DNA from: Moritella sp.
Lineage (GTDB): Bacteria; Pseudomonadota; Gammaproteobacteria; Enterobacterales; Moritellaceae
Length of the DNA: 64,000 bases
NCBI RefSeq assembly: GCF_013215705.1
Contig: NZ_JABSQR010000012.1
Location: forward strand, 62,001 to 126,000
Direction of reading: 5' to 3'
Under the pieces are notes generated by a model that saw only the letters and a program-made list of their open reading frames with translations, was not told where the DNA came from and searched no databases. The position numbers were made by a program, and so were the translations under genes. Positions 818-22,893 of the stretch are shown here, one piece after another. Positions within the stretch are counted from its first letter, which is position 1. Each line of letters starts with the position of its first letter.

Positions 818-1372
818 TTATTTTGTATTAACTGCGTCACCAGTACCGCTACCTGTAGCAGTCATAATGATATATTTAAAATAATCTTTTATTGTTAATG
901 TATCAATCATTTTACGGTCAGTTTTCGCCAACAGTTCAGGTGTCGACATATCAATATTGTTCACCTGAGCTAATCCGGTGATCCCAGGTAAAACATTGTA
1001 TACACCGCGCGCATCACGTTCATTAATCAACTCGTGCTGATTGAACAAATTAGGACGTGGACCAACAAAGCTCATTTCACCTTTAAGCACGTTAATAAGT
1101 TGCGGTAACTCATCTATTTTTGATTTACGTAAGAACCCACCTATTCTAGTAATCGAAGCAGAATTAGCCAGATGACTGGCTACCGATTCCGTTTCCACTG
1201 TCATCGTTCGAAACTTAATTAATGTAAATGGTTTTTTATTTTTACCGACACGGCTTTGCATAAATATCGGCGATTTAGTATCAAAGTAACCGATAACAGT
1301 AATGATAACTAAAATTGGTGCAGTCAGTGTCAAGCCGATAAAAGCCAGAATGAAGTCTAAAAATCTAATCAT
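818..1372 (-). CDS. Small priming phosphoglycosyl transferase (bacterial sugar transferase family)
   Basis: This 184-residue monotopic transferase (PF02397 type, PglC-like size) moves a sugar-1-phosphate from a UDP-sugar to undecaprenyl phosphate, starting a repeat unit. An N-terminal hydrophobic hairpin (residues 5-30) is followed by SRVGKNKKPFTLIKFRTM, then KIDELPQLINVLKGEMSF, which carries the catalytic Asp-Glu pair (D87-E88), and VGPRP. I chose the ATG at 1372 because it overlaps the upstream stop in an ATGATTAG junction; a longer frame to 1444 exists but lies inside the upstream gene. Its tight coupling to a 4-reductase-like gene suggests a 6-deoxy-HexNAc substrate such as UDP-QuiNAc; this is inference. 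Confidence 0.87.
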   Translation of the reverse strand: MIRFLDFILAFIGLTLTAPILVIITVIGYFDTKSPIFMQSRVGKNKKPFTLIKFRTMTVETESVASHLANSASITRIGGFLRKSKIDELPQLINVLKGEMSFVGPRPNLFNQHELINERDARGVYNVLPGITGLAQVNNIDMSTPELLAKTDRKMIDTLTIKDYFKYIIMTATGSGTGDAVNTK

Positions 1373-2339
1373 TTTTTTCTTCTCTTGTAAAAGCGTTGTT
1401 TTGTAACAAGGCATCTGCGGTTTTTTTGAAACCTTCATCGACACTCATAATCGGAGTCCAATTTAGCAAGGTTTTAGTTTTGGTTATATCAACATGCAAT
1501 GAACCCGTTAACCGGTTGATGACATCACTTTTACCTAACACCTTTCCAACTAATTGAAACAATGGCAGAGGAACAGGTAACATCCAGCCACTTTTACCAC
1601 AAGCCTTCGATAATTGACTAATCATCGAAGCAGTTGACAGATCATCATCATCAGACACTAAAAATACTTGGTTCGCCGCTTTAGGGTGCTCGATACAAGT
1701 CATGATCAAGTCAACTAAATTATCAACCGAGACCATGCTACGCTTGTTATTGTTTATACACGCAAAAGGTAATGGTAAACCTTTAGATACTAAATTAAGT
1801 AGCGAGGCGAAATTTGCTTTTACCCCCGGACCGTAAATCAATGGCGGACGGATAATCACAACTTCCATACCGGTTTCTTCAGCTAATACTAATAACTGTA
1901 TTTCAGCTTCAGACTTTGAAACACCATATGGGTCCAATGGATTACGCTCATCATCTGCAGTAAATGCTCCTGAATGCGAGGTACTTTCACCGTTTACCTT
2001 TATTGAACTGATAAAAATAAAGCGTTTTACCCCGGCTTCAGCAGCCTGTCTTGCTAAGTTCAGTGTACCAGCTGTATTCACTGTTCTATATTCAGCTAAC
2101 GGATCGCCAGAGCTGTCGTCCATGATGTGAGCACGGGCTGCACAGTGAATTAGAACGTTAGGAACAGATATAAAATTATAACTCGTTTCACTATTAATTG
2201 TATCAATGAGAATATCATCTACATCCATCAATACAGACGGAGTTCGACCTATTAGTAATAAATTCGAATCACTTTCAGTTAAATATTGCTTAATATAACT
2301 GCCTAAAAAACCGTTTCCACCGGTCAAACCAATTAGCAT
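1365..2339 (-). CDS. NAD-dependent epimerase/dehydratase, likely UDP-4-keto-6-deoxy-GlcNAc 4-reductase (WbpV-like)
   Basis: This is a 324-residue short-chain dehydrogenase with an N-terminal Rossmann motif (GGNGFLGS, residues 7-14), Ser111-Ser112, and the catalytic Tyr138-xxx-Lys142 in DPYGVSK. Extended SDRs of this type beside a priming transferase commonly make the first sugar nucleotide of the repeat. With the WbpM-like 4,6-dehydratase at 19.3-21.3 kb, the parsimonious role is reduction of UDP-4-keto-6-deoxy-GlcNAc to UDP-QuiNAc, as for Pseudomonas WbpV. A plain UDP-hexose 4-epimerase cannot be excluded. It overlaps the transferase by 8 bp and lies 2 bp after the GT2 gene, so it belongs to the same transcript. 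Confidence 0.8.
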   Translation of the reverse strand: MLIGLTGGNGFLGSYIKQYLTESDSNLLLIGRTPSVLMDVDDILIDTINSETSYNFISVPNVLIHCAARAHIMDDSSGDPLAEYRTVNTAGTLNLARQAAEAGVKRFIFISSIKVNGESTSHSGAFTADDERNPLDPYGVSKSEAEIQLLVLAEETGMEVVIIRPPLIYGPGVKANFASLLNLVSKGLPLPFACINNNKRSMVSVDNLVDLIMTCIEHPKAANQVFLVSDDDDLSTASMISQLSKACGKSGWMLPVPLPLFQLVGKVLGKSDVINRLTGSLHVDITKTKTLLNWTPIMSVDEGFKKTADALLQNNAFTREEKND

Positions 2340-6553: not shown

Positions 6554-7333
6554 TCAATGATTATGTTTAGCCATTTTAATTAAATGTTTTAAAAGACAAA
6601 AAGAAAATAATACCGGTAGCAGAGGCACATATTTAACCTCGCGAGTACAAAATTTAAAATACATCTTAAATTCACCTTTTCTCATTTTAAATTTATTTGA
6701 ACTAAGGCCCCCCTCACTCATCAGTGATCTATTCAGTCTAACAAGAGGGCGATTTAAATATTTTATAACGTAGCCATCCAGTATTACTCTTAGATAAAAA
6801 TCATGATCTTCAGTAAATCGAAAACTTTTATCAAATCTTGTGTTTAAACTACGTTTAAACACAATAGAAGGAGTAACCGCAAAGTTTTTAATTAACAAAC
6901 CGAATAAGCTAACAGAACTAATTTTGTACGAGTTTTCGTACAACGAATATTCATTAACTGAATAATCATGTCCAATTAAATCAATGCTTGGTTCATCATT
7001 TAATATATCAGAAATTAAAGACAACTTATTTTTATAAAAGTAATCATCGGCGTCTAATAACGCAATATATTCCGAATTAGACGCGTCAATACCGACATTC
7101 CTAGCATTTGACGGCCCTTGGTTTTCACTCAATTTTATCAATTTTACCGTTTGTTTTAAAGTGCTTCGCTTTATAAAATTATCGATAATATCGCAAGAAA
7201 AATCCTGACTGAAATCATCGACGATAATAATATCAAAATCTTCAAATGTTTGAGATGTACAACTTTCAATACACTTGACAATAGTCTCTTGAGCATTAAA
7301 GCATGGTATTACTATAGAAAATTTATGTTTCAT
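6554..7333 (-). CDS. Glycosyltransferase family 2
   Basis: A roughly 259-residue GT-A protein: FSIVIPCFNAQETI at the N terminus, IIIVDDFSQD, then the DADD metal/nucleotide-sugar motif near residue 95, and FTEDHDFYLRV further on as the acidic acceptor-site region. I start it at the ATG at 7333 rather than the in-frame TTG at 7342. It sits between wzx and rmlB in the O-antigen module and probably adds one sugar of the repeat unit. Donor and linkage are not readable. Confidence 0.82.
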   Translation of the reverse strand: MKHKFSIVIPCFNAQETIVKCIESCTSQTFEDFDIIIVDDFSQDFSCDIIDNFIKRSTLKQTVKLIKLSENQGPSNARNVGIDASNSEYIALLDADDYFYKNKLSLISDILNDEPSIDLIGHDYSVNEYSLYENSYKISSVSLFGLLIKNFAVTPSIVFKRSLNTRFDKSFRFTEDHDFYLRVILDGYVIKYLNRPLVRLNRSLMSEGGLSSNKFKMRKGEFKMYFKFCTREVKYVPLLPVLFSFCLLKHLIKMAKHNH

Positions 7334-7444
7334 TATTACCAACCAAATTTCAATATTATTTAATTCTAGGCGACTGATGACATCTATATTTCATCTCGTC
7401 ATTTTTATCAACCTTGAGTTTTTAGATTACTTGAGGACTAAAAA

Positions 7445-8851
7445 TTAAGATTGTTTTTTATTCATAAAAAATAGTCCTACTAGATAAAGTCCACCGCCAA
7501 AAAAGCACATTATAAAATTAGAAATAGAGAGTGCTACATTAAAATCAAATACTACAAAATAACCAATAGCAGGTAGCGTCATACCTATCGACAGTAAAAT
7601 TCTTTTAAATGGTATCCTAAATAATAGATAGCTCCTCATTGATATATACATAGAAACTAATACCACGATACTAGAACCAACAAGAATAGTTTGAATCTGA
7701 ATTCCAAATTGTAACCAACTTTTCAAAAATAGACCAACAGATAAATATATTGCACCAAGCGCATATGGAAGTATAAATTTTACCGTTTTTTTCTCCACTT
7801 GACTAACAACAGCAAAAGTATTAACTAATACTCTACCCAGTTCGATCCATGCACCATATATAGCGAAAATGTAAGCATCGTAGTATTGCTCTCCGATAAC
7901 AAAAGGAAAAAGGTATTTAACCGAAAAAGTTAGAAATAAAGCTAAAGATACGTACAAAGGGATCACTGTATAAAAATAGCTGTTAACAAGATCCGTTCTT
8001 TTTTCTTTGGTTGAATTTTCTGAGTTCTTATAAAGTTCCGGTATAAAGTATTGGGTTAATAATGACTCTGCAATTGCAAAAACCTGACTAGAAACGGCTA
8101 ATCCTACGCCTAAAAATGCAAGAAATTCTAAACCATACATTTTTTCAACTATCATTCTATATCCCGAATTTAAGAACCACATAAAAATGGTTGCAATAGC
8201 GATAGGAAAACAAAATTTACGTATTTCATTAAAATCTAGAGGGAGCCTTTTACTTGTCTCCACCAAGTATTTAGCTCTAAACCCAAACGTTGCTAAAATA
8301 ACGACAAAACCATTGCCAATAACTAATCCTGTAAGCCATGACAATGCTGTAGGACTGAAATATTGTATAAACACATATGAACAAATAAGAGAGAGTAAAG
8401 CGGTAAGAAGATTAAAAACAACGAATGCAACTCTTTGCTCCAGCATGTTAAGCAATGGCACTATAGTTTGGTTGGCACTTTGACTCAATATTAAAAACGA
8501 TGTAATGATCAATAAATTATAAGGTAACAAATTCAGACCGGATAATTTAATAACGAACATAAATAAAAAAGAAAATATTGTGATTAATAATATATACAAC
8601 AACTGTTTTTTGTAGGCGCCATAAATCTGACCTTCAAAATTCCATTTTGCCGTTTGTCTATTAAAATACTGTCCAATTGGATTTATAAGAAATAGTGAAA
8701 AAAAAGATTGTACTGTAATTATATAATATACGAATCCAAGTTCAATCTGAGGTAATATTGTTGTTGAAATCCTCAATGCACATAATGTAATAACAATTTG
8801 AAGTAAACGACCGGCTAATAAAACTTTGAAATTATTATTTATTTTTAACAT
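7445..8851 (-). CDS. Wzx-type O-antigen/polysaccharide flippase, copy 1
   Basis: A 468-residue polytopic protein with about a dozen predicted hydrophobic helices and almost no long soluble stretch, the usual size and profile of the MATE/MOP-type Wzx flippases. Wzx moves undecaprenyl-diphosphate-linked repeat units across the inner membrane. Its flank by glycosyltransferases supports the role. An octamer tandem repeat (8955-8990) lies about 100 bp upstream of its ATG. A second Wzx-like gene is at 38,189-39,661. Confidence 0.8.
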   Translation of the reverse strand: MLKINNNFKVLLAGRLLQIVITLCALRISTTILPQIELGFVYYIITVQSFFSLFLINPIGQYFNRQTAKWNFEGQIYGAYKKQLLYILLITIFSFLFMFVIKLSGLNLLPYNLLIITSFLILSQSANQTIVPLLNMLEQRVAFVVFNLLTALLSLICSYVFIQYFSPTALSWLTGLVIGNGFVVILATFGFRAKYLVETSKRLPLDFNEIRKFCFPIAIATIFMWFLNSGYRMIVEKMYGLEFLAFLGVGLAVSSQVFAIAESLLTQYFIPELYKNSENSTKEKRTDLVNSYFYTVIPLYVSLALFLTFSVKYLFPFVIGEQYYDAYIFAIYGAWIELGRVLVNTFAVVSQVEKKTVKFILPYALGAIYLSVGLFLKSWLQFGIQIQTILVGSSIVVLVSMYISMRSYLLFRIPFKRILLSIGMTLPAIGYFVVFDFNVALSISNFIMCFFGGGLYLVGLFFMNKKQS

Positions 8852-9062: not shown

Positions 9063-9989
9063 TTATCTAGCTATTAAATATTTAACGACTCTTAAAGCAG
9101 AAAGTAAAACGATATTAAGGGGGAGCGACTTGATCAATAAAAATGTTTTACCTAGTTTCCGTCTAAAAAAAGTTTTGAATACATAGTATCCTAGCTGTTC
9201 TAACTCGAATGAATTCAATCTTTTATTATTAGTATAATGATTTAACTTGTCTACAATAGATTCAATTTCATGAAAGTTTTTATTTATAAAATAATTAGAA
9301 ATTTTTATAGCATCCAGTAAGTTAGATGTTTTGTTAACATTTGACAATGATAAAGAAAAATCTCTATAATAAAATAAATATTCATCTACATTTGTAATTT
9401 TCGCACCTGACTCATAAAAACGTACCCAAAGAAAATAATCTTCTGCTGAAATAAATTTATCATCAACATAAGACAATCCATTATTTTCAAGAAATGAACG
9501 CCTAAATGTCACAGAACCATGTGCGAATGGCACTGAACGAGAAAGAATTATAGCCTGATAATCAGGATTTGTTGAAACGACTATAGAATGCATTAAGTTA
9601 CTTTGTTCATCTATAACATGAAAGTGACAACCGCAAATATCAAACCCTAATTCTAAAATATCCACTTGTTTTTCTATACGATCCAATGAACTTATATCAT
9701 CAGCATCCATTCTTGATATATACTTACCAGAAGCAATAGAGATAGCTTCATTTAAAGTATATATTAAGCCTTTATTTTCTCGACTTAAAACTTTCACTCT
9801 AGAGTCTATCTCTGAAAAATATTTAATTTTACTTAAAGAATCATCGCTGGAGCCATCATCAATAACTATTATTTCTAAATTTTTATATGTTTGATTGCAT
9901 ACTGAACTCAATGCATCATGAATATATTTAGATGCATTATAAACAGGTATAATAACACTAACCAAAATATCTAATTTTTCACCCGTCAC
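9063..9989 (-). CDS. Glycosyltransferase family 2
   Basis: A 308-residue GT2: VSVIIPVYNASKYI at the N terminus, IIVIDDGSSDDS, and the DXD site MDADD near residue 95 followed by SSLDRIEKQ, then SAEDYFLWVR in the acceptor region. The start is a GTG at 9989; a good AAAAGGG Shine-Dalgarno sequence 7 bases upstream supports it. Such enzymes with MDADD are common O-antigen hexosyl or HexNAc transferases. It follows the GT11 gene with a gap of about 65 bp. Confidence 0.83.
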   Translation of the reverse strand: MTGEKLDILVSVIIPVYNASKYIHDALSSVCNQTYKNLEIIVIDDGSSDDSLSKIKYFSEIDSRVKVLSRENKGLIYTLNEAISIASGKYISRMDADDISSLDRIEKQVDILELGFDICGCHFHVIDEQSNLMHSIVVSTNPDYQAIILSRSVPFAHGSVTFRRSFLENNGLSYVDDKFISAEDYFLWVRFYESGAKITNVDEYLFYYRDFSLSLSNVNKTSNLLDAIKISNYFINKNFHEIESIVDKLNHYTNNKRLNSFELEQLGYYVFKTFFRRKLGKTFLLIKSLPLNIVLLSALRVVKYLIAR

Positions 9990-10054: not shown

Positions 10055-10924
10055 TTACAATTTAACCCATAAATGAGGAATTATATCCCCCGATTCTTTA
10101 GCCATATTATCATTTTCGAACCATTTTTTTGGTGTGATTATTACTTTACTTTCATTTTTATTCAACCAAGCTCCCCACCAACTAAATGTACTATTAGATA
10201 TAATTTGATGTTTACACTGCGACATCAAAATCATATCTACTTCTGGTCGTTCAGCACTACCCGTTACAAAATTCAATTTATAACCAAGTTCTAAGTTATT
10301 ACGGCACCACTCAATATCATCAGAAAATACAAAAAATTCACTTGAATCATCGAGTATATTATTTTCGCTCATATATGCGATAGCGCGAGAAAAGTATGCA
10401 CTGTCACAAGTACCATGTATACTATTCGCATATTGATTGGAAATATAATCACCACGACGAATATGGATTGATATACTATTAGTATTGTTTATTTTATGGC
10501 TTACTTTAGTTTCAATGTTATTTAAAGAATTTTTCAGGGTCAACTCTTCTAATAATTGAGTTCTTATAACTTCAAAATATTTTTCAGTTTGAAAATATCC
10601 GATTAGCGAACTTCCATTTTCCACATTGAGCACATCTTCATTAAATTCTAAATTACGCTCAAAATAATACTTGTTAAATACTTTTAATTTACTTACGTGT
10701 TTTTTAATTACATTCCTTTCTAATAAAGAACGAAGCAATTGTTTCTTAGACGAGAATATACCTTTACAATTAAATTCATTTAAACGTAAAGGATGTACAT
10801 CATAAGAATTAAACTCACTTACATCCAAAACAACCGAGGTATTAAGTTTTTCACTTAAGGCTCTTGCTGTTGCATATTGAAAAAGCTGATTACCTAATCC
10901 ACCCATTATTTTAATTTTTATCAA
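10055..10924 (-). CDS. GT11 family alpha-1,2-fucosyl/colitosyltransferase
   Basis: A 289-residue protein with the hallmark GT11 motifs: MGGLGNQLFQYATA at residues 7-20, HIRRGDY at 154-160 (the donor-binding motif), and ISNSTFSWWGAWL in the C-terminal third. GT11 enzymes use GDP-fucose or, in colitose-containing O-antigens, GDP-L-colitose, to make alpha-1,2 linkages onto galactose. The neighbouring GDP-colitose genes make colitose the likely donor here (inference). The frame starts at TTG 10924, one base beyond the GT10 stop, with an AGG 10 bases before; an ATG at 10906 would cut the conserved beta strand. Confidence 0.9.
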   Translation of the reverse strand: MIKIKIMGGLGNQLFQYATARALSEKLNTSVVLDVSEFNSYDVHPLRLNEFNCKGIFSSKKQLLRSLLERNVIKKHVSKLKVFNKYYFERNLEFNEDVLNVENGSSLIGYFQTEKYFEVIRTQLLEELTLKNSLNNIETKVSHKINNTNSISIHIRRGDYISNQYANSIHGTCDSAYFSRAIAYMSENNILDDSSEFFVFSDDIEWCRNNLELGYKLNFVTGSAERPEVDMILMSQCKHQIISNSTFSWWGAWLNKNESKVIITPKKWFENDNMAKESGDIIPHLWVKL

Positions 10925-10925
10925 T

Positions 10926-11954
10926 TTAGTGCCTATTTAAATCATCTAATACATGTTCCACAATCATATTTGCAAATGTTTCAGCTCTATAAGGCTTAGA
11001 CTTATCTGAAAATAAATAATCTGAAATATTATTTTGAATATCTACATATTGTTCTTTGGTCATATTTTTTAAATATAAATAAAGTTCTTCGTGAGTCTTA
11101 AACTGTCTACGATCAATAAAACAATTTTCAGGTATATGTTCAGTTATATTAGGAGCCCCCCAATAAATTGGTACACACCCCGCAAAAAAGCAATCAAATA
11201 CTTTCTCTGTTATATAGCCAGATATCATCTGTGCATTTTCATAACATATGGAAAACTTATAATTATGTAACGTATCTCGTTTACTATCGACCATTCCTTT
11301 ATATGAAGGATGCTTAACAGCTAGTTTTTTCGATAACAAGGGTGTTCTAGCTAAAAAGTAATTTAAATAACGATTTGCTGACACTCGGATTTCCCATCCT
11401 ACACCATAAAACTCAAAATCATGTGGAGCATTTTTTTCAAACCAACGAATCGTTTTTACTCGTTTAGAATAAAGTTCCATTTTATGATTTACTACTTTAT
11501 TTCCAGAAATCAAAGTACATAACGTCTTATCTTCAAACGGAAGTATACCCGTTTTATATATATTAATATTGTCTGGAAATTTATGGGAAAAATTCATTTT
11601 AAAATATTTTTTATTATCAACTAAATCATCATTCCATGTAAATATTTTAGTGAATTGTTCATGCTGCTTCAACTCCCATGAAAAAGATTTTATAACAGCA
11701 CTTTCAAATAAAAATAAATAAGAAAAATCTGAAGTTATTTTAACTCCCTTTACAGGGAGATCGAAATATATCGCAAATTTTGAACGTGAAGGATCATTAA
11801 TATCGCAAGTCGATAAATCAACATTGATTTCATTCAGTTTTTTTTTTAAAAGCCAACTACTATATAAACAATCATCTCTATTTATATACTCATTGTCTAA
11901 ATCAAACATTTTATTTTGTAGATAATAATCAACAACAAGCGAAGCTTTCAACAT
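10926..11954 (-). CDS. GT10 family alpha-1,3/1,4-fucosyl/colitosyltransferase
   Basis: A 342-residue GT-B enzyme of the fucosyltransferase 10 family. The diagnostic block is FSICYEN (residues 234-240) followed by YITEKVFD (247-254) and GCVPIYWGAP, the GDP-sugar site shared with Helicobacter FucT. I start it at ATG 11954, which shares its A with the upstream TAA (TAATG); an in-frame ATG at 11978 would overlap the FkbM gene by 25 bp. GT10 enzymes add fucose alpha-1,3 or alpha-1,4 to GlcNAc. No separate GDP-fucose pathway is seen, so GDP-colitose is the probable donor. Confidence 0.88.
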   Translation of the reverse strand: MLKASLVVDYYLQNKMFDLDNEYINRDDCLYSSWLLKKKLNEINVDLSTCDINDPSRSKFAIYFDLPVKGVKITSDFSYLFLFESAVIKSFSWELKQHEQFTKIFTWNDDLVDNKKYFKMNFSHKFPDNINIYKTGILPFEDKTLCTLISGNKVVNHKMELYSKRVKTIRWFEKNAPHDFEFYGVGWEIRVSANRYLNYFLARTPLLSKKLAVKHPSYKGMVDSKRDTLHNYKFSICYENAQMISGYITEKVFDCFFAGCVPIYWGAPNITEHIPENCFIDRRQFKTHEELYLYLKNMTKEQYVDIQNNISDYLFSDKSKPYRAETFANMIVEHVLDDLNRH

Positions 11955-12610
11955 TAAATACGCTCCCAATTTTCCCATACAAAGTAATAATCGTATGTAA
12001 GATGATGGGTTTCCTTTAACCGCTCTCGAATATCCTGTCGTAGCGATTTTGCTTCAGGAAAAAAATCATGGAATTGAATTTGTATATTTTTACACTTAGC
12101 GACAAGTCCTTGTTCGAACATCCGCTCGAGCAATTCAAACTCACCACCTTCAATGTTAATTTTAATTAAATCAATTTCATCAATTTTTTGATCTTCACAA
12201 AAAGTAGACACATCTTTCAACTGAATCAGCTCTTTTTCAATACCTGAACAAGCAATCGTACTGGACGCATCATTTTGTACTGTAATGTTCATTTCCTGAT
12301 CACTACCAGCAAGTCCATAATTGTAAGCTTTAATACTTTCAACACCTTGAAATTTAGTAACAATTTCATTATAAAACCCTTCGACAGGCTCAAATATAAA
12401 GATATTACAGCCATACTGATTATATATATTTTCAGCCCAATCACCTTTATACCCACCTATATCAAATACAACCGAATCTTTACTAAGTGGATAGTTTAAG
12501 CGTAGTGTTTTATCACCATCAGCACGGATCCACTGACGCATGGCCATATAGAACAAATCTTTTGTCAGCAATTTATACGCGTTTTTTAATTTATTTAAAA
12601 AATAACTCAT
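11954..12610 (-). CDS. FkbM family SAM-dependent methyltransferase
   Basis: A 218-residue protein with a class I methyltransferase motif I (VVFDIGGYKGDW), the acidic strand FIFEPVEGF, and the FkbM signature IDLIKINIEGGEFELL. FkbM-type enzymes O-methylate sugars and other small molecules. A strong AGGAAAG ribosome site precedes ATG 12610. It lies between colD and the GT10 gene and is coupled to the latter, so it most likely methylates a sugar hydroxyl in this repeat unit; which one is unknown. Confidence 0.85.
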   Translation of the reverse strand: MSYFLNKLKNAYKLLTKDLFYMAMRQWIRADGDKTLRLNYPLSKDSVVFDIGGYKGDWAENIYNQYGCNIFIFEPVEGFYNEIVTKFQGVESIKAYNYGLAGSDQEMNITVQNDASSTIACSGIEKELIQLKDVSTFCEDQKIDEIDLIKINIEGGEFELLERMFEQGLVAKCKNIQIQFHDFFPEAKSLRQDIRERLKETHHLTYDYYFVWENWERI

Positions 12611-12660
12611 CTTCTTTCCTTATAAAATATCAATACAAAAGTACTTTATTAGCTAAATAA

Positions 12661-13833
12661 CTAACAAAGTACTTTAGCTAATAACTTAATTTCAACGTCA
12701 ATATCATTTTGATGATTACCAACAAATAAACCATGCTTATCAATATATTCAGCATTCGCGACACTACCAGCAACTTCATAATCAAAATACTCTAGCACTT
12801 GTGTATTCTTAAGGAAATTACCCGTTACAATCGGACGGCATTCAATCCCATTTTTAACTAATAGTTTAATTAATTCTGCACGCGTATAAGGTGCATTTTC
12901 TTTTAATACTAACGAGAAACCAAACCAGCTACTTTGACCTGTTTCTTGTTGAATATCAATATAAGGATGGTTCGCAAATAATGATTGGAATAATTTTGCA
13001 TTGCGCTGTCTTATTGCAATAAAACCAGGTAATTTTTTCAATTGCTCGATACCCAGTGCACCACTCATTTCTAGTGGGCGGGCGTTATAACCAGGCAGCA
13101 TAAATTTAAATGATTCTTCAAATGGGTCATCACTTTTCTCACCGCTAACATGATTAAATTTCGGCAGGTTGCGTGTCCAACCATGTGCACGAATGCATAA
13201 CAGAATATGGTAAAGCTCTTCATCATCAGTAACAACACAACCGCCTTCCATCGTCGCGATATGGTGCGAGAAGAATGAACTGTATGTCCCCATGACGCCA
13301 AACGTACCCGCTTGCTTACCATCAAGTGTTGCACCCATCGATTCACAGTTATCTTCGAGAATAAAAATATCACGACCCGCAATAATTTCATTCATACGAT
13401 TATAATCGTTCGGGTTACCTAATAGATTAACGGACAGAATTGCGCGTGTTTTATCTGTAATAGCGGCTTCTAACTGATCAAGATCCATATTTAAGGTATT
13501 GCGATCGATATCAACAAATTTTACTTTTAAACCATATTGCTGCAATGGAAAATAAGTCGTTGACCAAGATACTACCGGCACAATAATTTCGTCACCGCGT
13601 TTTAGCTTAAATTTACTATTTTTTGTAAAGAATAAACTGGCAATCATTAATAAATTAGCCGTAGAACCTGAACTCACCATTAGCGCGTATTTAGAACCAA
13701 AAAATTTCGCAAAATCTTGTTCATATTGCGCGACATGTTTACCCATCGTAAACATGTCTGAATCGATGACACTTTGAATCGCGCCAAATTCACGCTCATC
13801 CCAGGTACTACTTGCTAGCGAATAATTAATCAT
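12661..13833 (-). CDS. colD: GDP-4-keto-6-deoxy-D-mannose 3-dehydratase (colitose synthesis)
   Basis: A 390-residue DegT/DnrJ/EryC1/StrS-fold PLP enzyme. The lysine that normally holds PLP is replaced: the loop reads SSFFSHHIATMEGG, with His190-His191 (numbered from ATG 13833). The pyridine-binding Asp161 (EDNCESMGA) is kept. A histidine at this place is the known hallmark of the 3-dehydratases ColD and RfbH/DdhC, as opposed to sugar aminotransferases. Being next to gmd and a GDP-sugar reductase points to ColD, which removes the C3 hydroxyl. I prefer ATG 13833 (GTGAG ribosome site) over an in-frame GTG at 13845; either start overlaps the colC end. Confidence 0.9.
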   Translation of the reverse strand: MINYSLASSTWDEREFGAIQSVIDSDMFTMGKHVAQYEQDFAKFFGSKYALMVSSGSTANLLMIASLFFTKNSKFKLKRGDEIIVPVVSWSTTYFPLQQYGLKVKFVDIDRNTLNMDLDQLEAAITDKTRAILSVNLLGNPNDYNRMNEIIAGRDIFILEDNCESMGATLDGKQAGTFGVMGTYSSFFSHHIATMEGGCVVTDDEELYHILLCIRAHGWTRNLPKFNHVSGEKSDDPFEESFKFMLPGYNARPLEMSGALGIEQLKKLPGFIAIRQRNAKLFQSLFANHPYIDIQQETGQSSWFGFSLVLKENAPYTRAELIKLLVKNGIECRPIVTGNFLKNTQVLEYFDYEVAGSVANAEYIDKHGLFVGNHQNDIDVEIKLLAKVLC

Positions 13834-14752
13834 TACAGTGCTCACTTACATAAAATTGATAGGTTTTCTTAATACCGGCGGTTAATGACGTTTTATAGCG
13901 CCAGCCAAATGCAGTTAATTTTGTATCATCAATTAACTTCTGTCTCATGCCGACAGGTTTACTTAAGTCATGCTTAAAGCTACCCGTAAAGCCAACCACA
14001 TCAGCGATCGCCTGGTAATATTCATTAATCGTATAGTCAGTGCCAAGGCCTACATTCAAGTTCTGTGGCATAGCCTCAAAACGTTCAATCGCGTAGAAAA
14101 TAAAGTCTGCAAGATCTTCCGCATACATAAACTCACGACGCGCTTCACCATCACCCCAGATATCTATTTCAGCTAATCCCGCTTTGGCCGCTTCGTCTAA
14201 TTTACGAATAACAGCAGGGATCATATGTGAATGATTCGGGTCAAACTTATCAAACTTACCGTATAAATTGCATGGGATAATGGTTTTATATATCAATGTC
14301 GCATCTTCTTTACTGATATATTCACACAAGCGCGTGCTTGCTACTTTTGCCAGCGCATAACCTTCATTCGTTGGCTCTAATTCACCTTTCAGAATTAACT
14401 CTTCTGACAGTGGATTAATCGCATCACGTGGATACATGCATGAACTGCTGAGATTTAAAAATTGCCTAACTTCCGCATCTTTCGCGGCAGTTAAAATATT
14501 CAATCCCATTTGCATATTTTCAACTAAAAACTTGACCGGTTCTGCCATATTAGCTTGAATACCGCCCACAACGCCCGCAGCATGAATGACCATATCTGGC
14601 TTATGTGCATGGAAATATTGGCGAACAGACTCCGCATCAAGTAAATTAAGTTCAGCACTACTCGGCGATAAAAATACATGTTGATGCTGGCTGGCAACCG
14701 CTAAAATATTTTTGCCAACCATGCCATTAGCACCAGTTAATAAAATTTTCAT
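13826..14752 (-). CDS. colC: GDP-L-colitose synthase (Fcl-like reductase/epimerase)
   Basis: A 308-residue SDR clearly related to GDP-L-fucose synthase: TGANGMVGKN near the N terminus, the SSSCMYPRDA block, NEGYALAKVA carrying the Tyr-xxx-Lys pair, and NLYGKFDKFDPNHSHMIPA. GDP-fucose synthase Fcl and GDP-colitose synthase ColC are hard to tell apart from motifs. The call rests on coupling to ColD (8 bp overlap), whose product is the ColC substrate. ColC epimerises C5 and reduces C4 of the 3-deoxy intermediate to give GDP-L-colitose. If ColD were inactive the same enzyme could give GDP-fucose. Confidence 0.8.
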   Translation of the reverse strand: MKILLTGANGMVGKNILAVASQHQHVFLSPSSAELNLLDAESVRQYFHAHKPDMVIHAAGVVGGIQANMAEPVKFLVENMQMGLNILTAAKDAEVRQFLNLSSSCMYPRDAINPLSEELILKGELEPTNEGYALAKVASTRLCEYISKEDATLIYKTIIPCNLYGKFDKFDPNHSHMIPAVIRKLDEAAKAGLAEIDIWGDGEARREFMYAEDLADFIFYAIERFEAMPQNLNVGLGTDYTINEYYQAIADVVGFTGSFKHDLSKPVGMRQKLIDDTKLTAFGWRYKTSLTAGIKKTYQFYVSEHCND

Positions 14753-14761
14753 TTAATCGAC

Positions 14762-15886
14762 CTATTCAACTGACACAGATGATGTATAACCATGCGCTTT
14801 TAAAATTGCATGTTTTTTGGCATTTTGTAGATCATTATCGACCATCTCTGCACACATTTCTTCAACCGTGATCTCTGGTACCCAGCCTAATATTTCTTTG
14901 GCTTTTGATGGATCACCCAGTAATGTTTCTACTTCAGCAGGACGGAAGTAGCGCGGATCAACTTTCACTATCACATCACCTATTTTCACTGCTGGCGCAT
15001 TCTCACCTGAAATTGATTTAACCGTTGCGACCTCATCCAGCCCGGTACCGGTAAACTCTAATTCAATACCGGCTTCTTCCGCTGATAATGAAACGAACTC
15101 GCGTACACTAATTTGTTTGCCTGTTGCAATCACAAAATCATCTGCTTTATCTTGCTGTAACATCATCCATTGCATGCGCACGTAATCTTTGGCATGACCC
15201 CAGTCACGTAGTGCATCCATATTACCAAGATACAAACACTTTTCTAAACCTTGGGAAATATTAGCGATCGCACGAGTAATTTTACGGGTTACAAAGGTTT
15301 CACCACGACGTGGGGATTCATGATTAAATAAAATACCATTGCACGCATACATACCATAAGATTCACGGTAGTTTACGACTATCCAGTAAGCGTACATTTT
15401 TGCTACTGCATACGGTGAACGCGGGTGAAAAGGGGTGGTTTCACGTTGTGGGATCTCTTGCACTTCACCGAACAGCTCAGAGGTCGATGCTTGGTAGAAC
15501 TTGGTCTTTTTCTCAAGTCCTAAAAAACGAATAGCTTCAAGTAAACGTAATGTACCCATTGCATCTACATCTGCGGTATATTCAGGGCATTCGAAAGAAA
15601 CAGCAACGTGTGACTGTGCGCCTAAATTATATACTTCATCAGGTTGCACTTCTTTAATGATACGGGTCAGATTTGATGAATCAGTTAAATCACCATAATG
15701 TAAGAAAAACTTCTGGTTTTTCTCGTGATTATCTTGAAAAATATGGTCAATACGGTCTGTATTTAATGATGATGCACGACGTTTAATACCGTGAACTTCA
15801 TAACCTTTTTCTAATAATAATTCTGCAAGGTATGAACCATCTTGACCTGTTACACCTGTGATTAACGCAACTTTATTCTTATTCAT
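14762..15886 (-). CDS. gmd: GDP-mannose 4,6-dehydratase
   Basis: A 374-residue extended SDR with [15 protein letters not shown] at the N terminus, RRASS, the [11 protein letters not shown] catalytic block, and [12 protein letters not shown] carrying the Tyr-xxx-Lys pair. This is canonical Gmd, producing GDP-4-keto-6-deoxymannose, the branch point for GDP-fucose, GDP-colitose and related sugars. It lies 9 bp before colC and 22 bp after manB. Confidence 0.96.
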
Positions 15887-15908: not shown

Positions 15909-17324
15909 TTACTTTCTTAATAACGCTAAAATATTTTTTGTTTTTTCATGCATTAATGCAATGTTTTGTTTTGATTCTACATTTAAACGAACTACAGGTT
16001 CGGTATTTGATGAACGCAAGTTAAAGCGCCAGTCAGCAAACTCTAGGCTAATGCCATCTGTTTCATCCACAACTAATGCATTCACTTCATATTCTGCACG
16101 CACTCTGGCAATAGCTTCAACTGGGTTCGCAAGCTTAGAGTTAATTTCACCTGATGATGGGTAGGCTTCAATACGCGCTTTCACAGTATCTGACAGTTTC
16201 ATGTTTTTCACACACAATAATTCTGTCACCAGTAACCAAGGGATCATACCAGAATCACAATAAGCAAAATCACGAAAGTAATGATGTGCACTCATTTCAC
16301 CACCGTATACCGCATCTTCTTTGCGCATACGTTCTTTAATGAAAGCGTGTCCAGTCTTAGACATGATTGCTACACCACCGTTCGCGTCTACGATATCGAT
16401 GGTATTCCAGCTTAAACGAGGATCGTGAATAATTTTAGCGCCACTTTTTCCTTGTAAAGCCTCTTTTTGTAAAAATGCTTCAGCTAATAAACCAACGATA
16501 TAGTAACCCTCGATAAACTCGCCATTTTCATCAAACAAGAAACAACGGTCAAAGTCACCGTCCCAGGCAATACCCATATCCGCATTATGCTCAATAACTG
16601 CATTAGCGGTATCCGCACGACAATCATCTAATAATGGGTTGGGGATACCGTTGGGGAAGTGACCATCAGCTTCATGATGTACTTTAATAAATTCAACAGG
16701 TATATTTAATGCTTTAAAGCGCAGCTCTAATTCATCGACAACATGACCTGCAGCGCCGTTACCTGAGTTAACAACCAGTTTAATCGGCTTAATGTTAGCA
16801 GGCGTAATGTATGTCATTAAGTGGTCAACATAAGCAGTTAATGTTGATTGCAGCGTTAACGTGCCACGTTCGCTTGCAACAACATCGACAAAATCATTTG
16901 CTTCTGCTAACGCTTGAATTTCACGTAGACCTGTATCACCACTAATGGGTTTTGAGTCCTCACGCACCAATTTCATACCGTTATAATCCATTGGATTATG
17001 ACTTGCTGTGACTTCTACACCGCCATCGATGCCAAGGTATTTTGTCGCAAAGTATATTTCTTCAGTGCCTGTCATACCGATATCGATAACATCGACACCC
17101 GAGTCCATTAGACCATTCGCTAATGCAAGTTTTAACTCTTCGGATGTTAGGCGAATATCACCACCAACAACGACTTTTTTTTGCGCTGTTGTTGAACACT
17201 TACTTTCTGAAAACAAATACTGACCAAAAGCACGACCAATACGATAGGCTATGTCATTGTTTAACTCTAAGCCTAATTGACCACGAATGTCATAAGCTTT
17301 AAATGCTGTTAATTTAGTTGTCAT
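15909..17324 (-). CDS. manB: Phosphomannomutase
   Basis: A 471-residue phosphohexomutase: phosphoserine loop TASHNP (Ser108), metal site DGDFDR, sugar-specificity loop [10 protein letters not shown], and C-terminal phosphate loop RSSNTEP. It interconverts mannose-6-phosphate and mannose-1-phosphate for the GDP-mannose supply. Length and motifs fit ManB/CpsG. Confidence 0.95.
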
Positions 17325-17353: not shown

Positions 17354-18769
17354 TTAAACTCTGCCATATTTATCATCGAAACGTACAATATCATCTTCAC
17401 CAAGGTAAGAACCTGTTTGCACTTCAATCAGTTCAAGAGGTAATACGCCAGGATTTTCTAATGCGTGAATTTGACCAAGAGGGATATATGTCGATTCATT
17501 TTCTGTTACTAAGAATGTTTTATCACCATTCGTTACTTTTGCAGTACCCGATACCACGATCCAGTGTTCTGCGCGGTGATGATGCATTTGAATTGATAGT
17601 TTAGCACCCGGTTTTACTGTAATACGTTTAACTTGATCGCGGTCACCAAAATCAAGTGAGTCATATTTCCCCCAAGGACGGTATACTTCTCGGTGTATCT
17701 TATGCTCTGTTCGTCCAGCTTGTTTGAGGAGATTAACAATTTTCTTTACATCTTGAACGCGGTCTTTATTGGCAACTAAAATCGCATCTTTTGTTTCAAC
17801 AACAACAATATTATCAATACCCAAAGTTGCAATAAGCTTATTCTCAGAGTAAAAGTAACCATTTGAAGAATCAACACTAATTACATCACCTTTAATGACA
17901 TTGTTATTTTCATCTTTTACAGAAACATCCCATAGTGCAGACCATGAACCAACATCACTCCAACCAGCATCCATTGGTACAACCACTACATCAGCACTTT
18001 TCTCCATTACTGCATAATCAATCGAATCGTCAGGACATAATTCAAATGCAGCTTTATCAACACGAATAAAGTCCATATCCGCATTGGATTCAGACATAGC
18101 ATCTACACACGCGGCAATAATTTCTGGATGATGAATTTTTAATTCTTCAATATAACGTGAGGCTTTAAACAAGAACATACCACTGTTCCAGTAATAATCA
18201 CCACTATCAAGATAACGTTGTGCAGTTCCTAAATCTGGTTTTTCTACAAACTGATTTACACTAAATGCAGCACCTTCAGCGTCACCTGCATTGATATAAC
18301 CATAGCCAGTTTCTGGTGACGTAGGTACGATACCGAATGTAACTAATTTACCTTCTTGAGCAAAAGGTAATGCTTTTTCAACTGATGATTGAAATGCAGC
18401 AGTATCTTCAATTAAATGGTCTGCTGCTAGCACGAGTAAAATAAGTTCTTCGTCTTGTTTCGCGGTCTTTAATGCTTGTAATGCAGCCAAAGCAATCGCA
18501 GGCGCTGTATTACGGCCAACAGGCTCTAATATAATACCACTATGCTCAAAACCACCTAAACGCAATTGCTCTGCAGCAATAAAGCGGTGTTCTTCATTAC
18601 AAATTAATAGTGGTGCTTGGTGTGGAATACCAGATAAACGAGCAACCGTTTGTTGTAGCATGGACAGATCACCCGAAACAGTTAAAAATTGTTTCGGATA
18701 TAGTTCGCGAGAAAGAGGCCACAACCGACTACCAGTGCCGCCCGCCATAATTACAGGTAAAATCATCAT
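17354..18769 (-). CDS. manC: Mannose-1-phosphate guanylyltransferase / mannose-6-phosphate isomerase
   Basis: A bifunctional ManC of about 471 residues. The N-terminal nucleotidyltransferase shows [20 protein letters not shown] and FVEKPD; the C-terminal cupin (type II PMI) shows [20 protein letters not shown] use ATG 18769, preceded by GGA, rather than the in-frame TTG at 18778. It supplies GDP-mannose to Gmd in the same operon. Confidence 0.95.
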
Positions 18770-18804
18770 GAGTTCCAAAATCTAAAAGAATAAAGTCAAA
18801 AAGG

Positions 18805-19251
18805 TTATTCAAAATACCAACGAGTATGAGTATGTACATCTCGATGTTCAAGTAATTCGTTTATACTCATCCAAGTATATTGACTATGCTGTTCTGTTGG
18901 GAGTACTAGTTGAGCGTCATCAACAACAAGTCGATAACCAAGCGCAATATAATGAGTACTAAAATCATCACCAGTTACGTTATCTCTATAAAAATGCTCA
19001 AAGGGGCCAATGAGTTCAGCCTGAGATATATCAAATGCTTTACCTAGCTCATTTAATGTTAATCGTTTAAATGCGCTAGCCATTGATTCATCCTTTTGAA
19101 TACGCCCACCAGGTACAAACCAGTAACCTTTGGCAGGTCGATTAGTTCTCATCCCCAGCAAAACATTCCCTTCTTTATCTGTCACTATTAAATCAATAGA
19201 TATTAATGGTGTTGAAGCTATAATTTTTTTAAATAATTCTAAAGGTAACAT
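18805..19251 (-). CDS. gmm: GDP-mannose mannosyl hydrolase (Nudix)
   Basis: A 148-residue Nudix-related protein. The Nudix box reads GGRIQKDESMASAFKRL, which lacks the usual REUxEE glutamates; this loss is characteristic of the Gmm/NudD subfamily that hydrolyses GDP-mannose and GDP-glucose at the sugar carbon. WYFVPGGRI and HFYRDN also match. Gmm genes accompany gmd-manC-manB in colanic acid and colitose clusters, where they may adjust GDP-mannose levels. Confidence 0.92.
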   Translation of the reverse strand: MLPLELFKKIIASTPLISIDLIVTDKEGNVLLGMRTNRPAKGYWFVPGGRIQKDESMASAFKRLTLNELGKAFDISQAELIGPFEHFYRDNVTGDDFSTHYIALGYRLVVDDAQLVLPTEQHSQYTWMSINELLEHRDVHTHTRWYFE

Positions 19252-21468: not shown

Positions 21469-22893
21469 TTAGTTACTTGGCCGTAATATCCGCGCATCAG
21501 GCACTAATAGTCCTAGTTTTTCCGCTAACGCCTGTTTCGCAGCTTCATCACCATGCACTATCCGTATCTCGCGTGGTTTATGCTTGATATGTTTGACAAA
21601 ATTAATCAGATCCAGTTGATCCGCATGGGCCGAATAACCACTGATGGTATGGATACCGGCTTTAATGGTGATGCGTTTACCGTTAAGATCCACATAACCA
21701 CCCTTAGGGCCATAGCGTTGAATATCGCGGCCGGGGGTACCTTGGGCTTGATAACCGACAAAAATAACATCGGCTTTGGCATCCGGTAAGAATTGCGTCA
21801 GGTAATTGACGATACGACCACCACTGCACATGCCACTCGCGGCGATGACGATGGCGGGTTTGTTACGTTTAGACAGATATTGAACTACAGAGAGATGGTC
21901 TTGATGATTGTCGATGGTATACAGTTGCTCAAAATCCAGCGGATGGCGACCTTGCTTGAGTTTACCTAATGCTTCTTTATCCCACAGCCCTTTAAAGTCG
22001 CGGTATTTATCGGTGAAGTTGGCAGCCATTGGCGAGTCGACAATAATTTCGATGTTTTTCCATAAGCTATTCTTTGGCGCAGCATAAATAAACTGTTCGA
22101 TTTCGTAAAGTAACTCTTGGGTACGGCCGATACTGAATGCCGGGATCAACACCACGCCATTATCGCTCACCGCATGCTCGATCACCGCTTGTAACTTTTG
22201 ACTACGCAAATTGCGATGTTCGTGCCGTTTATCACCATAAGTACTTTCGATAATTAACGTATCAGCGCGATATGGCGCTCGGGGTGAGGATAATAACGGA
22301 CTGTAAGACGCGCCAAGATCACCGGAAAATACCAGACGGTGACGGCAAATGGGTTTATCGGTGGCAAGTTCAATTTCGACATAGGCGGAACCAAGGATAT
22401 GTCCGGCAGGACAAAAGCGGATCTTCTGGCGTTGATAGCAGACTTCATTCGGCTTTATATCTTCTTTGGGTATTTTCAGTACCTCAATTGTTTGCCATTT
22501 TTGATACGGCACGGGGATGAGTTGGTTTTGTAATAGGGAAAGGCAAGCTTGGATGAGTTTTTTATCACGGGTGACACCGACTTTAAGGGCGTCTTCAATG
22601 ACAAGGGGAAGCAGAGCTGCAGTCGCTTGTGTGGCATAAATAGGGCCAGTGTAGCCTGCGGCTAATAAATATGGAATGCGACCGACATGATCGATATGGC
22701 AATGGGTAATGATAAGCGCTTTAATAGTCCGCACATTAAAGTCGATAGAGAGTTGGTTTGTGTTGCTGTTACCAGCGGCTTCTGAACCTTGAAATAAGCC
22801 ACAATCAATCAACACTGAATTATAATCATTCATATACAGTTGATGACAAGAGCCGGTCACGCCATTAACCGCACCATGATGTAAAATACGCAT
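21469..22893 (-). CDS. Metallo-beta-lactamase/beta-CASP RNA-processing-type hydrolase
   Basis: A 474-residue protein: HCHIDHVGR (residues 64-72) is the HxHxDH zinc site, SGDLGASYSP gives the next metal Asp, and the beta-CASP cassette (IIVDSPMAANFTDKY, ASGMCSGGRIVNYL) with the C-terminal SGYSAHADQ metal-binding region are complete. Family members are RNA endonucleases or exonucleases related to CPSF-73/Ysh1. It is embedded in the polysaccharide cluster between galE and the WbpM-like gene on the same strand. Function there is unknown; RNA processing of the long transcript is only speculation. Confidence 0.88.
   Translation of the reverse strand: MRILHHGAVNGVTGSCHQLYMNDYNSVLIDCGLFQGSEAAGNSNTNQLSIDFNVRTIKALIITHCHIDHVGRIPYLLAAGYTGPIYATQATAALLPLVIEDALKVGVTRDKKLIQACLSLLQNQLIPVPYQKWQTIEVLKIPKEDIKPNEVCYQRQKIRFCPAGHILGSAYVEIELATDKPICRHRLVFSGDLGASYSPLLSSPRAPYRADTLIIESTYGDKRHEHRNLRSQKLQAVIEHAVSDNGVVLIPAFSIGRTQELLYEIEQFIYAAPKNSLWKNIEIIVDSPMAANFTDKYRDFKGLWDKEALGKLKQGRHPLDFEQLYTIDNHQDHLSVVQYLSKRNKPAIVIAASGMCSGGRIVNYLTQFLPDAKADVIFVGYQAQGTPGRDIQRYGPKGGYVDLNGKRITIKAGIHTISGYSAHADQLDLINFVKHIKHKPREIRIVHGDEAAKQALAEKLGLLVPDARILRPSN

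What the first reader, a model, noticed from the sequence alone, without database searches (positions are those of the whole stretch)
10055..13833. GT11 and GT10 enzymes next to GDP-colitose genes: probable colitosyl Lewis-type antigen
The window encodes a complete GDP-L-colitose route (gmm, manC, manB, gmd, colC, colD) and, directly downstream, one GT11 (alpha-1,2) and one GT10 (alpha-1,3/1,4) transferase. In Lewis b/Y antigens, these two families put fucose on Gal and GlcNAc. Vibrio cholerae O139 makes such a structure with colitose (3-deoxyfucose) instead of fucose. Both enzymes here would then have to accept GDP-colitose; a GT10 colitosyltransferase would be of particular interest because GT10 enzymes are mostly known as fucosyltransferases.
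Basis: partly seen in the sequence, partly recalled or inferred. Interest (0 to 1): 0.75.

Follow-up and report, generated by a model that had tools for sequence, protein, structure and literature searches.

The report
Colitose-linked branch of GT10 fucosyltransferases
A bacterium carries all genes for the rare sugar colitose next to two fucosyltransferase-type enzymes, and relatives of one of them sit beside the same colitose genes in distant bacteria, so this fucosyltransferase branch probably attaches colitose instead of fucose, making a bacterial look-alike of a human blood-group antigen.

Summary
ColD keeps the 3-dehydratase His-His motif (644 bits to solved ColD/WbdK). ColC is 56% identical to E. 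coli O55 ColC, 35-39% to Fcl-type proteins. The genome has one GT10, one GT11 and no Fcl above cut-off, so GDP-colitose is the likely donor.

New here: the GT10 belongs to a divergent branch. Of its six complete members found outside the window, five come from genomes with gmd-colC-colD (four on the same stretch); the sixth abuts CDP-3,6-dideoxyhexose genes (rfbFGH). A further, split member starts after colD. GT10/colitose co-occurrence exceeds chance in three genome sets (p 0.0001-0.008 depending on counting; kinship ignored). A canonical GT10 lineage is also joined to colC-colD once. But 8 of 8 alphaproteobacterial plasmid cassettes and four E. coli loci lack GT10.

GT2 genes resembling the two O55 GT2s, plus rmlBADC, suggest the colitose-Lewis b tetrasaccharide of V. 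cholerae O139 and Aeromonas trota. Donor and linkage are inferred; no biochemistry was done, and O139 genes could not be compared.

The parts
10926..11978 (-). GT10-family glycosyltransferase, proposed colitosyltransferase (probably onto GlcNAc)
   Evidence: PF00852 52 bits over the C-terminal donor motif; phmmer 9.8e-15 to H. pylori FucT; predicted fold best matches GT10 structures, E 4.4e-11; branch with colitose-linked relatives
10055..10924 (-). GT11-family glycosyltransferase, proposed alpha-1,2-colitosyltransferase onto Gal
   Evidence: PF01531 135 bits; 38-40% identical to the E. coli O55 GT11 at L014:2608-3480
12661..13845 (-). colD, GDP-4-keto-6-deoxymannose 3-dehydratase
   Evidence: 644 bits to PDB 2gms (WbdK/ColD), His-His motif aligned
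13826..14752 (-). colC, GDP-L-colitose synthase
   Evidence: 56% to O55 ColC, 35-39% to six Fcl-type proteins, 7 columns invariant in 13 ColC rows and different in the six
14762..15886 (-). gmd, GDP-mannose 4,6-dehydratase
   Evidence: TIGR01472 593 bits, cut-off 415
15909..17324 (-). manB, phosphomannomutase
   Evidence: four PGM/PMM Pfam domains; NF011943 789.5 bits, just under its cut-off of 801
17354..18778 (-). manC, mannose-1-P guanylyltransferase / mannose-6-P isomerase
   Evidence: TIGR01479 774 bits, cut-off 373
18805..19251 (-). gmm, GDP-mannose mannosyl hydrolase (Nudix)
   Evidence: NF011963 193 bits, cut-off 146
11954..12610 (-). FkbM-family methyltransferase between colD and GT10; may methylate the glycan (inferred)
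   Evidence: TIGR01444 58 bits; an FkbM relative (48-50%) also lies between colD and the start of GT10 in L140
9063..9989 (-). GT2 glycosyltransferase, proposed beta-1,3-galactosyltransferase
   Evidence: PF00535; of the two O55 GT2s best to L014:5761-6558, 110 bits against 67; WbgO by recall
6554..7342 (-). GT2 glycosyltransferase, proposed GlcNAc transferase
   Evidence: PF00535; of the two O55 GT2s best to L014:6569-7318, 131 bits against 56; WbgP by recall
7445..8851 (-). probable Wzx-type flippase (by reading, a polytopic membrane protein)
   Evidence: no Pfam match; 26-32% to proteins near colD in L002, L003 and L137
3097..6506 (-). rmlB-rmlA-rmlD-rmlC, dTDP-L-rhamnose synthesis
   Evidence: PF16363, PF00483, PF04321, PF00908
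2342..3100 (-). putative glycosyltransferase (perhaps rhamnosyltransferase)
   Evidence: no Pfam match; only a weak TIGR01556 match, E 0.003
1365..2339 (-). NAD-dependent sugar epimerase/reductase
   Evidence: PF01370 102 bits; 52% to L137:18689-19639 in another colitose/GT10 cluster
818..1444 (-). initiating sugar-phosphate transferase
   Evidence: PF02397 167 bits
19344..21260 (-). WbpM-type UDP-HexNAc dehydratase (family by Pfam, name by recall)
   Evidence: PF02719 429 bits

Best explanation
This is a polysaccharide (probably O-antigen) locus that makes GDP-L-colitose (manB, manC, gmd, then colD removing the C3 hydroxyl and colC epimerising C5 and reducing C4) and puts two colitoses on a Gal-GlcNAc unit. 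GT11 adds one alpha-1,2 to Gal; GT10 adds the other to GlcNAc, most likely at O4 because Gal occupies O3. The product would be the colitose version of Lewis b, as in V. cholerae O139 and Aeromonas trota. The GT10 belongs to a divergent branch that works with GDP-colitose in place of GDP-fucose. Shown: the genes, their families, no Fcl-type GDP-fucose synthase above cut-off, and repeated GT10/colitose linkage. Inferred: donor, linkage, acceptor, order of transfer.
For: Complete colitose route. One GT10, one GT11, no Fcl over cut-off. GT10 branch (100/99 support): besides the window L002, L003, L046, L137, L139 and L004; the first five come from genomes with gmd-colC-colD (four on the same stretch), L004 abuts rfbFGH. 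A split member in G662 starts after colD and FkbM. Co-occurrence, window left out: class sample 3 of 4 cassette genomes versus 20 of 364 others have GT10 (p 0.0008); family f191 3 of 3 versus 0 of 21 (p 0.0005). GT11 accompanies it in window, L046 and L137. The two GT2s pair with the two O55 GT2s. Likely catalytic Glu and donor motif kept; fold matches GT10. WbgN (GT11) uses GDP-colitose (PMC11987014, PMC12723683, passages).
Against: No biochemistry. Colitose does not need GT10: none by HMM in 8 of 8 alphaproteobacterial plasmid cassettes (10 kb flanks), in L109 and L141, or in four E. coli loci. L004 and the sister L047 come from genomes with Gmd and a 32-40% ColC/Fcl-like protein elsewhere and no gmd-colC-colD found, so the branch may contain fucosyltransferases. 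GT11 enzymes take either donor, so supply and not enzyme may set the sugar. The GlcNAc acceptor rests on distant GT2 similarity. Counting all 15 ColD-like genomes weakens the class test to p 0.008. Its GT10s were sought with a profile of this branch, which may miss canonical GT10s and so inflate the test. Kinship and cluster transfer are ignored.
Confidence: 0.62

Rival explanations
1. Both transferases add colitose, but the geometry is not Lewis b: GT10 acts alpha-1,3 on a type-2 chain (Lewis y-like) or on another residue of the repeat.
For: The nearest solved GT10 structures are named alpha-1,3-fucosyltransferases; the acceptor cannot be read from sequence; L002 and L003 have GT10 without GT11 in the stretch held.
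Against: The two GT2s pair with the two GT2s of the O55 cluster, whose GT11 WbgN acted only on type-1 chains in PMC12723683 (passages); rmlBADC plus gene count fit the A. trota backbone (PMC3210612, passages).
Confidence: 0.25
2. GT11 is the only colitosyltransferase; GT10 transfers another sugar, or GDP-fucose made as a side product by ColC acting on the Gmd product.
For: ColC and Fcl are relatives and, by general knowledge, act on similar ketosugars; L004 and L047 genomes have Gmd plus a ColC/Fcl-like protein elsewhere.
Against: No Fcl over cut-off in the window genome; L002 and L003 have colC-colD and GT10 but no GT11 in the stretch held, so GT11 is not the general partner.
Confidence: 0.1
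3. The locus is silent or the glycan differs, the transferases being relics of cluster exchange.
For: Such clusters seem to move: L002 and L003 share a toolkit across phyla.
Against: All frames intact and tightly spaced; GT10/colitose linkage kept at 45-54% identity among the six colitose-linked GT10s.
Confidence: 0.05

Closest known systems
E. coli O55 O-antigen locus with WbgN (GT11 alpha-1,2-colitosyltransferase)
   Same: colC/colD, manB, manC and GT11 at 38-40% identity; two GT2s as best counterparts
   Different: no GT10 in the 20 kb held, so one colitose; window has rmlBADC and FkbM
V. cholerae O139 and A. trota 1354 polysaccharides (two colitoses on Gal-GlcNAc)
   Same: predicted tetrasaccharide end; the A. 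trota backbone Gal-GlcNAc-Rha-GalNAc (PMC3210612, passages; last residue printed GalpAc) fits an initiator, three GTs and rhamnose genes
   Different: genes of those strains were not available here; nothing I read names their second colitosyltransferase; window also has a WbpM-type gene
Canonical bacterial GT10 (H. pylori FucT and kin)
   Same: donor motif, likely catalytic Glu, fold
   Different: about 20% overall identity to canonical L053; donor loop one residue longer: 8 residues between EN and TEK in 7 of 7 branch rows, 7 in 29 of 30 other readable rows (one row); no FucT_N match
L053 GT10 (canonical type beside gmd-colC-colD)
   Same: GT10 overlapping colD in a colitose cassette
   Different: other GT10 clade, has FucT_N: apparently an independent recruitment

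Membership tests
GT10 (alpha-1,3/4-fucosyltransferase family) | PF00852 C-terminal domain above gathering score | tested here: met
   52.4 bits, cut-off 23.9
GT10 (alpha-1,3/4-fucosyltransferase family) | GT-B fold like solved GT10 enzymes | tested here: met
   model pLDDT 78.8; ranks 1-15 of the Foldseek list are fucosyltransferases of GT10 (family by recall), best E 4.4e-11, TM 0.42-0.51 by query
GT10 (alpha-1,3/4-fucosyltransferase family) | catalytic Glu (E95 of H. pylori FucT, by recall) | tested here: met
   E92 aligned with the TGEN Glu of L053, invariant in 9 rows
GT10 (alpha-1,3/4-fucosyltransferase family) | transfers fucose from GDP-fucose | not testable with these tools
   no assay; genome lacks an Fcl over cut-off
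GT11 | PF01531 domain and HxRRGDY motif (motif by recall) | tested here: met
   135 bits; HIRRGDY invariant with the O55 GT11
GT11 | alpha-1,2-colitosyltransferase like WbgN | tested here: inconclusive
   38-40% identity only
ColD 3-dehydratase | His in place of the aminotransferase Lys | tested here: met
   FFSHHIATMEGG aligned to 2gms; role of the His: PMC8987622, passages
ColC (versus Fcl) | closer to ColC than to Fcl | tested here: met
   56% O55 ColC versus 35-39% Fcl-type; 307 bits against an Fcl cut-off of 500
Colitose-Lewis b antigen | Col on both Gal and GlcNAc of Gal-beta-1,3-GlcNAc | not testable with these tools
   needs glycan analysis; gene content consistent

The most novel reading that the evidence does not exclude
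GT10 contains a dedicated 3,6-dideoxyhexosyltransferase branch, marked by a one-residue longer donor loop. Its members use GDP-colitose, and one (L004, whose gene overlaps rfbF of an rfbFGH set) has moved to a CDP-3,6-dideoxyhexose donor; a second GT10 lineage (L053) was recruited to colitose independently. This would be a GT10 group whose natural donor is not GDP-fucose.
Probability: 0.15. Interest if true: 0.75.

Novelty: new variant of a known kind. Interest (0 to 1): 0.5.

Why it matters
In V. cholerae O139 the terminal tetrasaccharide with its two colitoses is a main antibody target (PMC8386440, passages), and such epitopes resemble human Lewis antigens. A GT11 colitosyltransferase is characterised, but a search for 'colitose' with 'GT10' returned 0 papers, in a library that lacks most subscription journals. 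A GT10 branch recurring beside colitose genes gives concrete candidates for the enzyme that puts the second colitose on GlcNAc, and tools for making such glycans.

Tried and rejected
Counting every ColD-like hit as colitose was rejected. Of 15 genomes with ColD E<=1e-70 in the class sample I count 5 with the gmd-colC-colD set. Six at 50-54% (G042, G087, G214, G317, G026, G043) keep His-His but have no Gmd match in the stretch held; their neighbours read like GHMP kinase, E1-type TPP or nucleotidyltransferase genes. Of the other four (37-41%), G369 (L115) and G297 (L116) were fetched, G162 and G049 were not. L116 is ambiguous: a His-His 3-dehydratase (37%) beside Gmd (57%) and ColC-like proteins (31%, 36%); it may be another GDP-dideoxysugar set, and it has no GT10 match by tblastn. 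If G297 and the unfetched G049 count as cassettes the class test is p 0.004; with all 15 it is p 0.008.

The first GT10 model (pLDDT 63.7) was replaced by one from a 9-row alignment. My first donor-loop count read only part of the rows and was redone. No direct O139 comparison: I found no O139 sequence to use, and the papers seen did not assign its colitosyltransferases. The organism is perhaps Moritella, guessed from genome size and family structure; not verified. A fucose salvage route (fucokinase) was not searched. Searches of plasmids and phages with GT10 gave no match covering 80% of it; a scan of viral contigs gave no relative. Of 13 plasmid records with ColD I fetched 10.
Full report
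What is there. On the minus strand, in order of transcription: a WbpM-type dehydratase, gmm, manC, manB, gmd, colC, colD, FkbM methyltransferase, GT10, GT11, GT2, a Wzx-like protein, GT2, rmlB, rmlA, rmlD, rmlC, a putative GT, an NAD-dependent epimerase and an initiating sugar-phosphate transferase. Gaps between genes from colC to GT11 run from -25 to 50 bp.

The pathway makes colitose. ColD matches solved ColD/WbdK over its whole length with the His-His motif (644 bits). ColC is 56% identical to O55 ColC and 35-39% to six Fcl-type proteins, with seven columns invariant in the 13 ColC rows and different in those six; one of the 13, L141, is only 42% to the window. In the whole genome the Fcl model finds nothing above its cut-off (500 bits); its best match is this ColC at 307 bits, the next is 58 bits. 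There is one Gmd over cut-off, one GT10, one GT11. GDP-colitose is therefore the likely donor for both; a salvage route to GDP-fucose was not searched.

The GT10 is a true but divergent member. PF00852 covers only its C-terminal motif; phmmer reaches H. pylori FucT at 9.8e-15. The predicted structure (pLDDT 78.8) has as its 15 best PDB matches fucosyltransferases of GT10, with modest TM-scores of 0.42-0.51; unrelated GT-B enzymes follow closely. The likely catalytic Glu is invariant in nine rows. Of 42 GT10s, the 7 complete branch members have 8 residues between EN and TEK of the donor loop, 29 others have 7, L047 has 11, and 5 could not be read that way (with L047 and one L067 row).

Its relatives sit by colitose genes. 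A scan of 84,980 species genomes by six peptide patterns, which finds close relatives only, gave three: L002 and L003, both with gmd-colC-colD, and L004 with rfbF-rfbG-rfbH. L002 also carries rfbFGH, L003 at least rfbF at the contig end. Five genomes had gmd-colC-colD, and four of them had GT10 beside it: window, G164/L002, G303/L046, G113/L053; G093/L109 had none. In 394 genomes of the window's order five had ColD at 79% or more; four of these also have GT10: window, G554/L137, G594 (GT10 on another contig, L139) and G662. In G662 a piece of GT10 follows colD and an FkbM relative at a contig end, 55% over 44 residues, and another piece lies on a second contig. G658/L141 has none. In family f191 the three genomes of 24 with the GT10 are the three with ColD (that all 24 were in the order sample is judged from their handle numbers).

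Tests, window left out: class 0.0008; order 0.004, or 0.00009 with G662; f191 0.0005. Less favourable counts of the class sample give 0.004 and 0.008. The order and f191 sets overlap, kinship is ignored, and the class sample used a branch profile that may miss canonical GT10s. These are guides, not strict probabilities.

Tree. Among 42 GT10s, the six complete members from colitose genomes plus L004 form a clade at 100/99; L053 lies in a different clade (99/98) with canonical enzymes and has the canonical FucT_N domain. So GT10 was joined to colitose at least twice on this tree, although long branches make deep joins unsure. Gene order around the GT10 varies (a Wzx-like gene between colD and GT10 in L137, opposite strands in L003, GT11 on the other strand in L046), yet the pairing persists at 45-54% GT10 identity.

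Evidence against. Eight alphaproteobacterial plasmid cassettes, each with Gmd, ColC and ColD, have no GT10 within 10 kb, and one of them has a GT11. E. coli O55 and three O111-like loci have none. L109 and L141 have none. The L004 and L047 genomes carry Gmd and a ColC/Fcl-like protein elsewhere, and their GT10s may be fucosyltransferases. GT11 is seen with this GT10 only in window, L046 and L137; L002, L003 and L139 have a PF13524 transferase instead, L139 being a 4.2 kb contig.

What the glycan may be. Of the two O55 GT2s, the window's GT2 at 9063-9989 best matches L014:5761-6558 and that at 6554-7342 best matches L014:6569-7318; I recall these as WbgO (beta-1,3-galactosyltransferase) and WbgP. 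O55 WbgN acted only on type-1 chains and also takes GDP-fucose (PMC12723683, passages; PMC11987014, passages). A. [quoted passage not shown] The window's initiator, three GT or GT-like genes, rhamnose genes, GT10 and GT11 fit a hexasaccharide of that kind. On a type-1 chain GlcNAc O3 is taken, so GT10 would act at O4. This is inference; FkbM and WbpM-type genes suggest further differences, and no gene for the polymerase was assigned in the window.

Known or new. Colitose Lewis b-like glycans and a GT11 colitosyltransferase are known. I found no paper naming a GT10 with colitose: searches 'colitosyltransferase' (3 papers), 'GDP-colitose' with 'fucosyltransferase' (1 paper), 'colitose' with 'GT10' (none), in an open-licence library that lacks most subscription journals; of the papers cited I saw passages only. 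From memory, human Lewis fucosyltransferase accepts GDP-3-deoxyfucose in vitro; the listing showed no paper on it. Verdict: new variant of a known kind, supported by context, awaiting biochemistry.

Noticed in passing
window 21469-22893: A beta-CASP RNase (PF10996, PF07521) borders the colitose cluster; V. cholerae O-antigen loci lie between gmhD and rjg (PMC1847822, passages), and rjg is, by recall, such an RNase.
   Followed up: partly
window 23051-48852: A second polysaccharide gene set (UDP-sugar dehydrogenase, epimerases, GT4s, second rmlA/rmlB-like pair, DegT aminotransferase, Wzx-like) with Wzc and Wza at its upstream end.
   Followed up: partly
L118 11450-17120 (left of the window): Genes that look like pseudaminic acid synthesis, by reading of the ORFs; not run against family libraries.
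   Followed up: no
L107, L110-L114, L163, L164: ColD-like His-His proteins (about 50-54%) with no Gmd match in the stretch held, beside genes that read like GHMP kinase, E1-type TPP subunits or nucleotidyltransferases: another use of a ColD-like 3-dehydratase, unexplained.
   Followed up: partly
L116 9890-13115: A His-His 3-dehydratase (37% to ColD) beside Gmd (57%) and ColC-like proteins: possibly a different GDP-dideoxysugar pathway.
   Followed up: partly
L002 and L003: Gammaproteobacterial and Bacteriovoracaceae MAGs share an O-antigen toolkit with GDP-colitose genes and CDP-3,6-dideoxyhexose genes (only rfbF in L003, at the contig end), with a PF13524 transferase near GT10.
   Followed up: partly
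L155-L162: Colitose cassettes on plasmids of Paracoccus, Phaeobacter, Sulfitobacter, Parasedimentitalea and Chelatococcus.
   Followed up: partly
L167 (E. coli APEC E956): colC and colD of an O111-like locus are annotated in pieces, one flagged as pseudogene.
   Followed up: no
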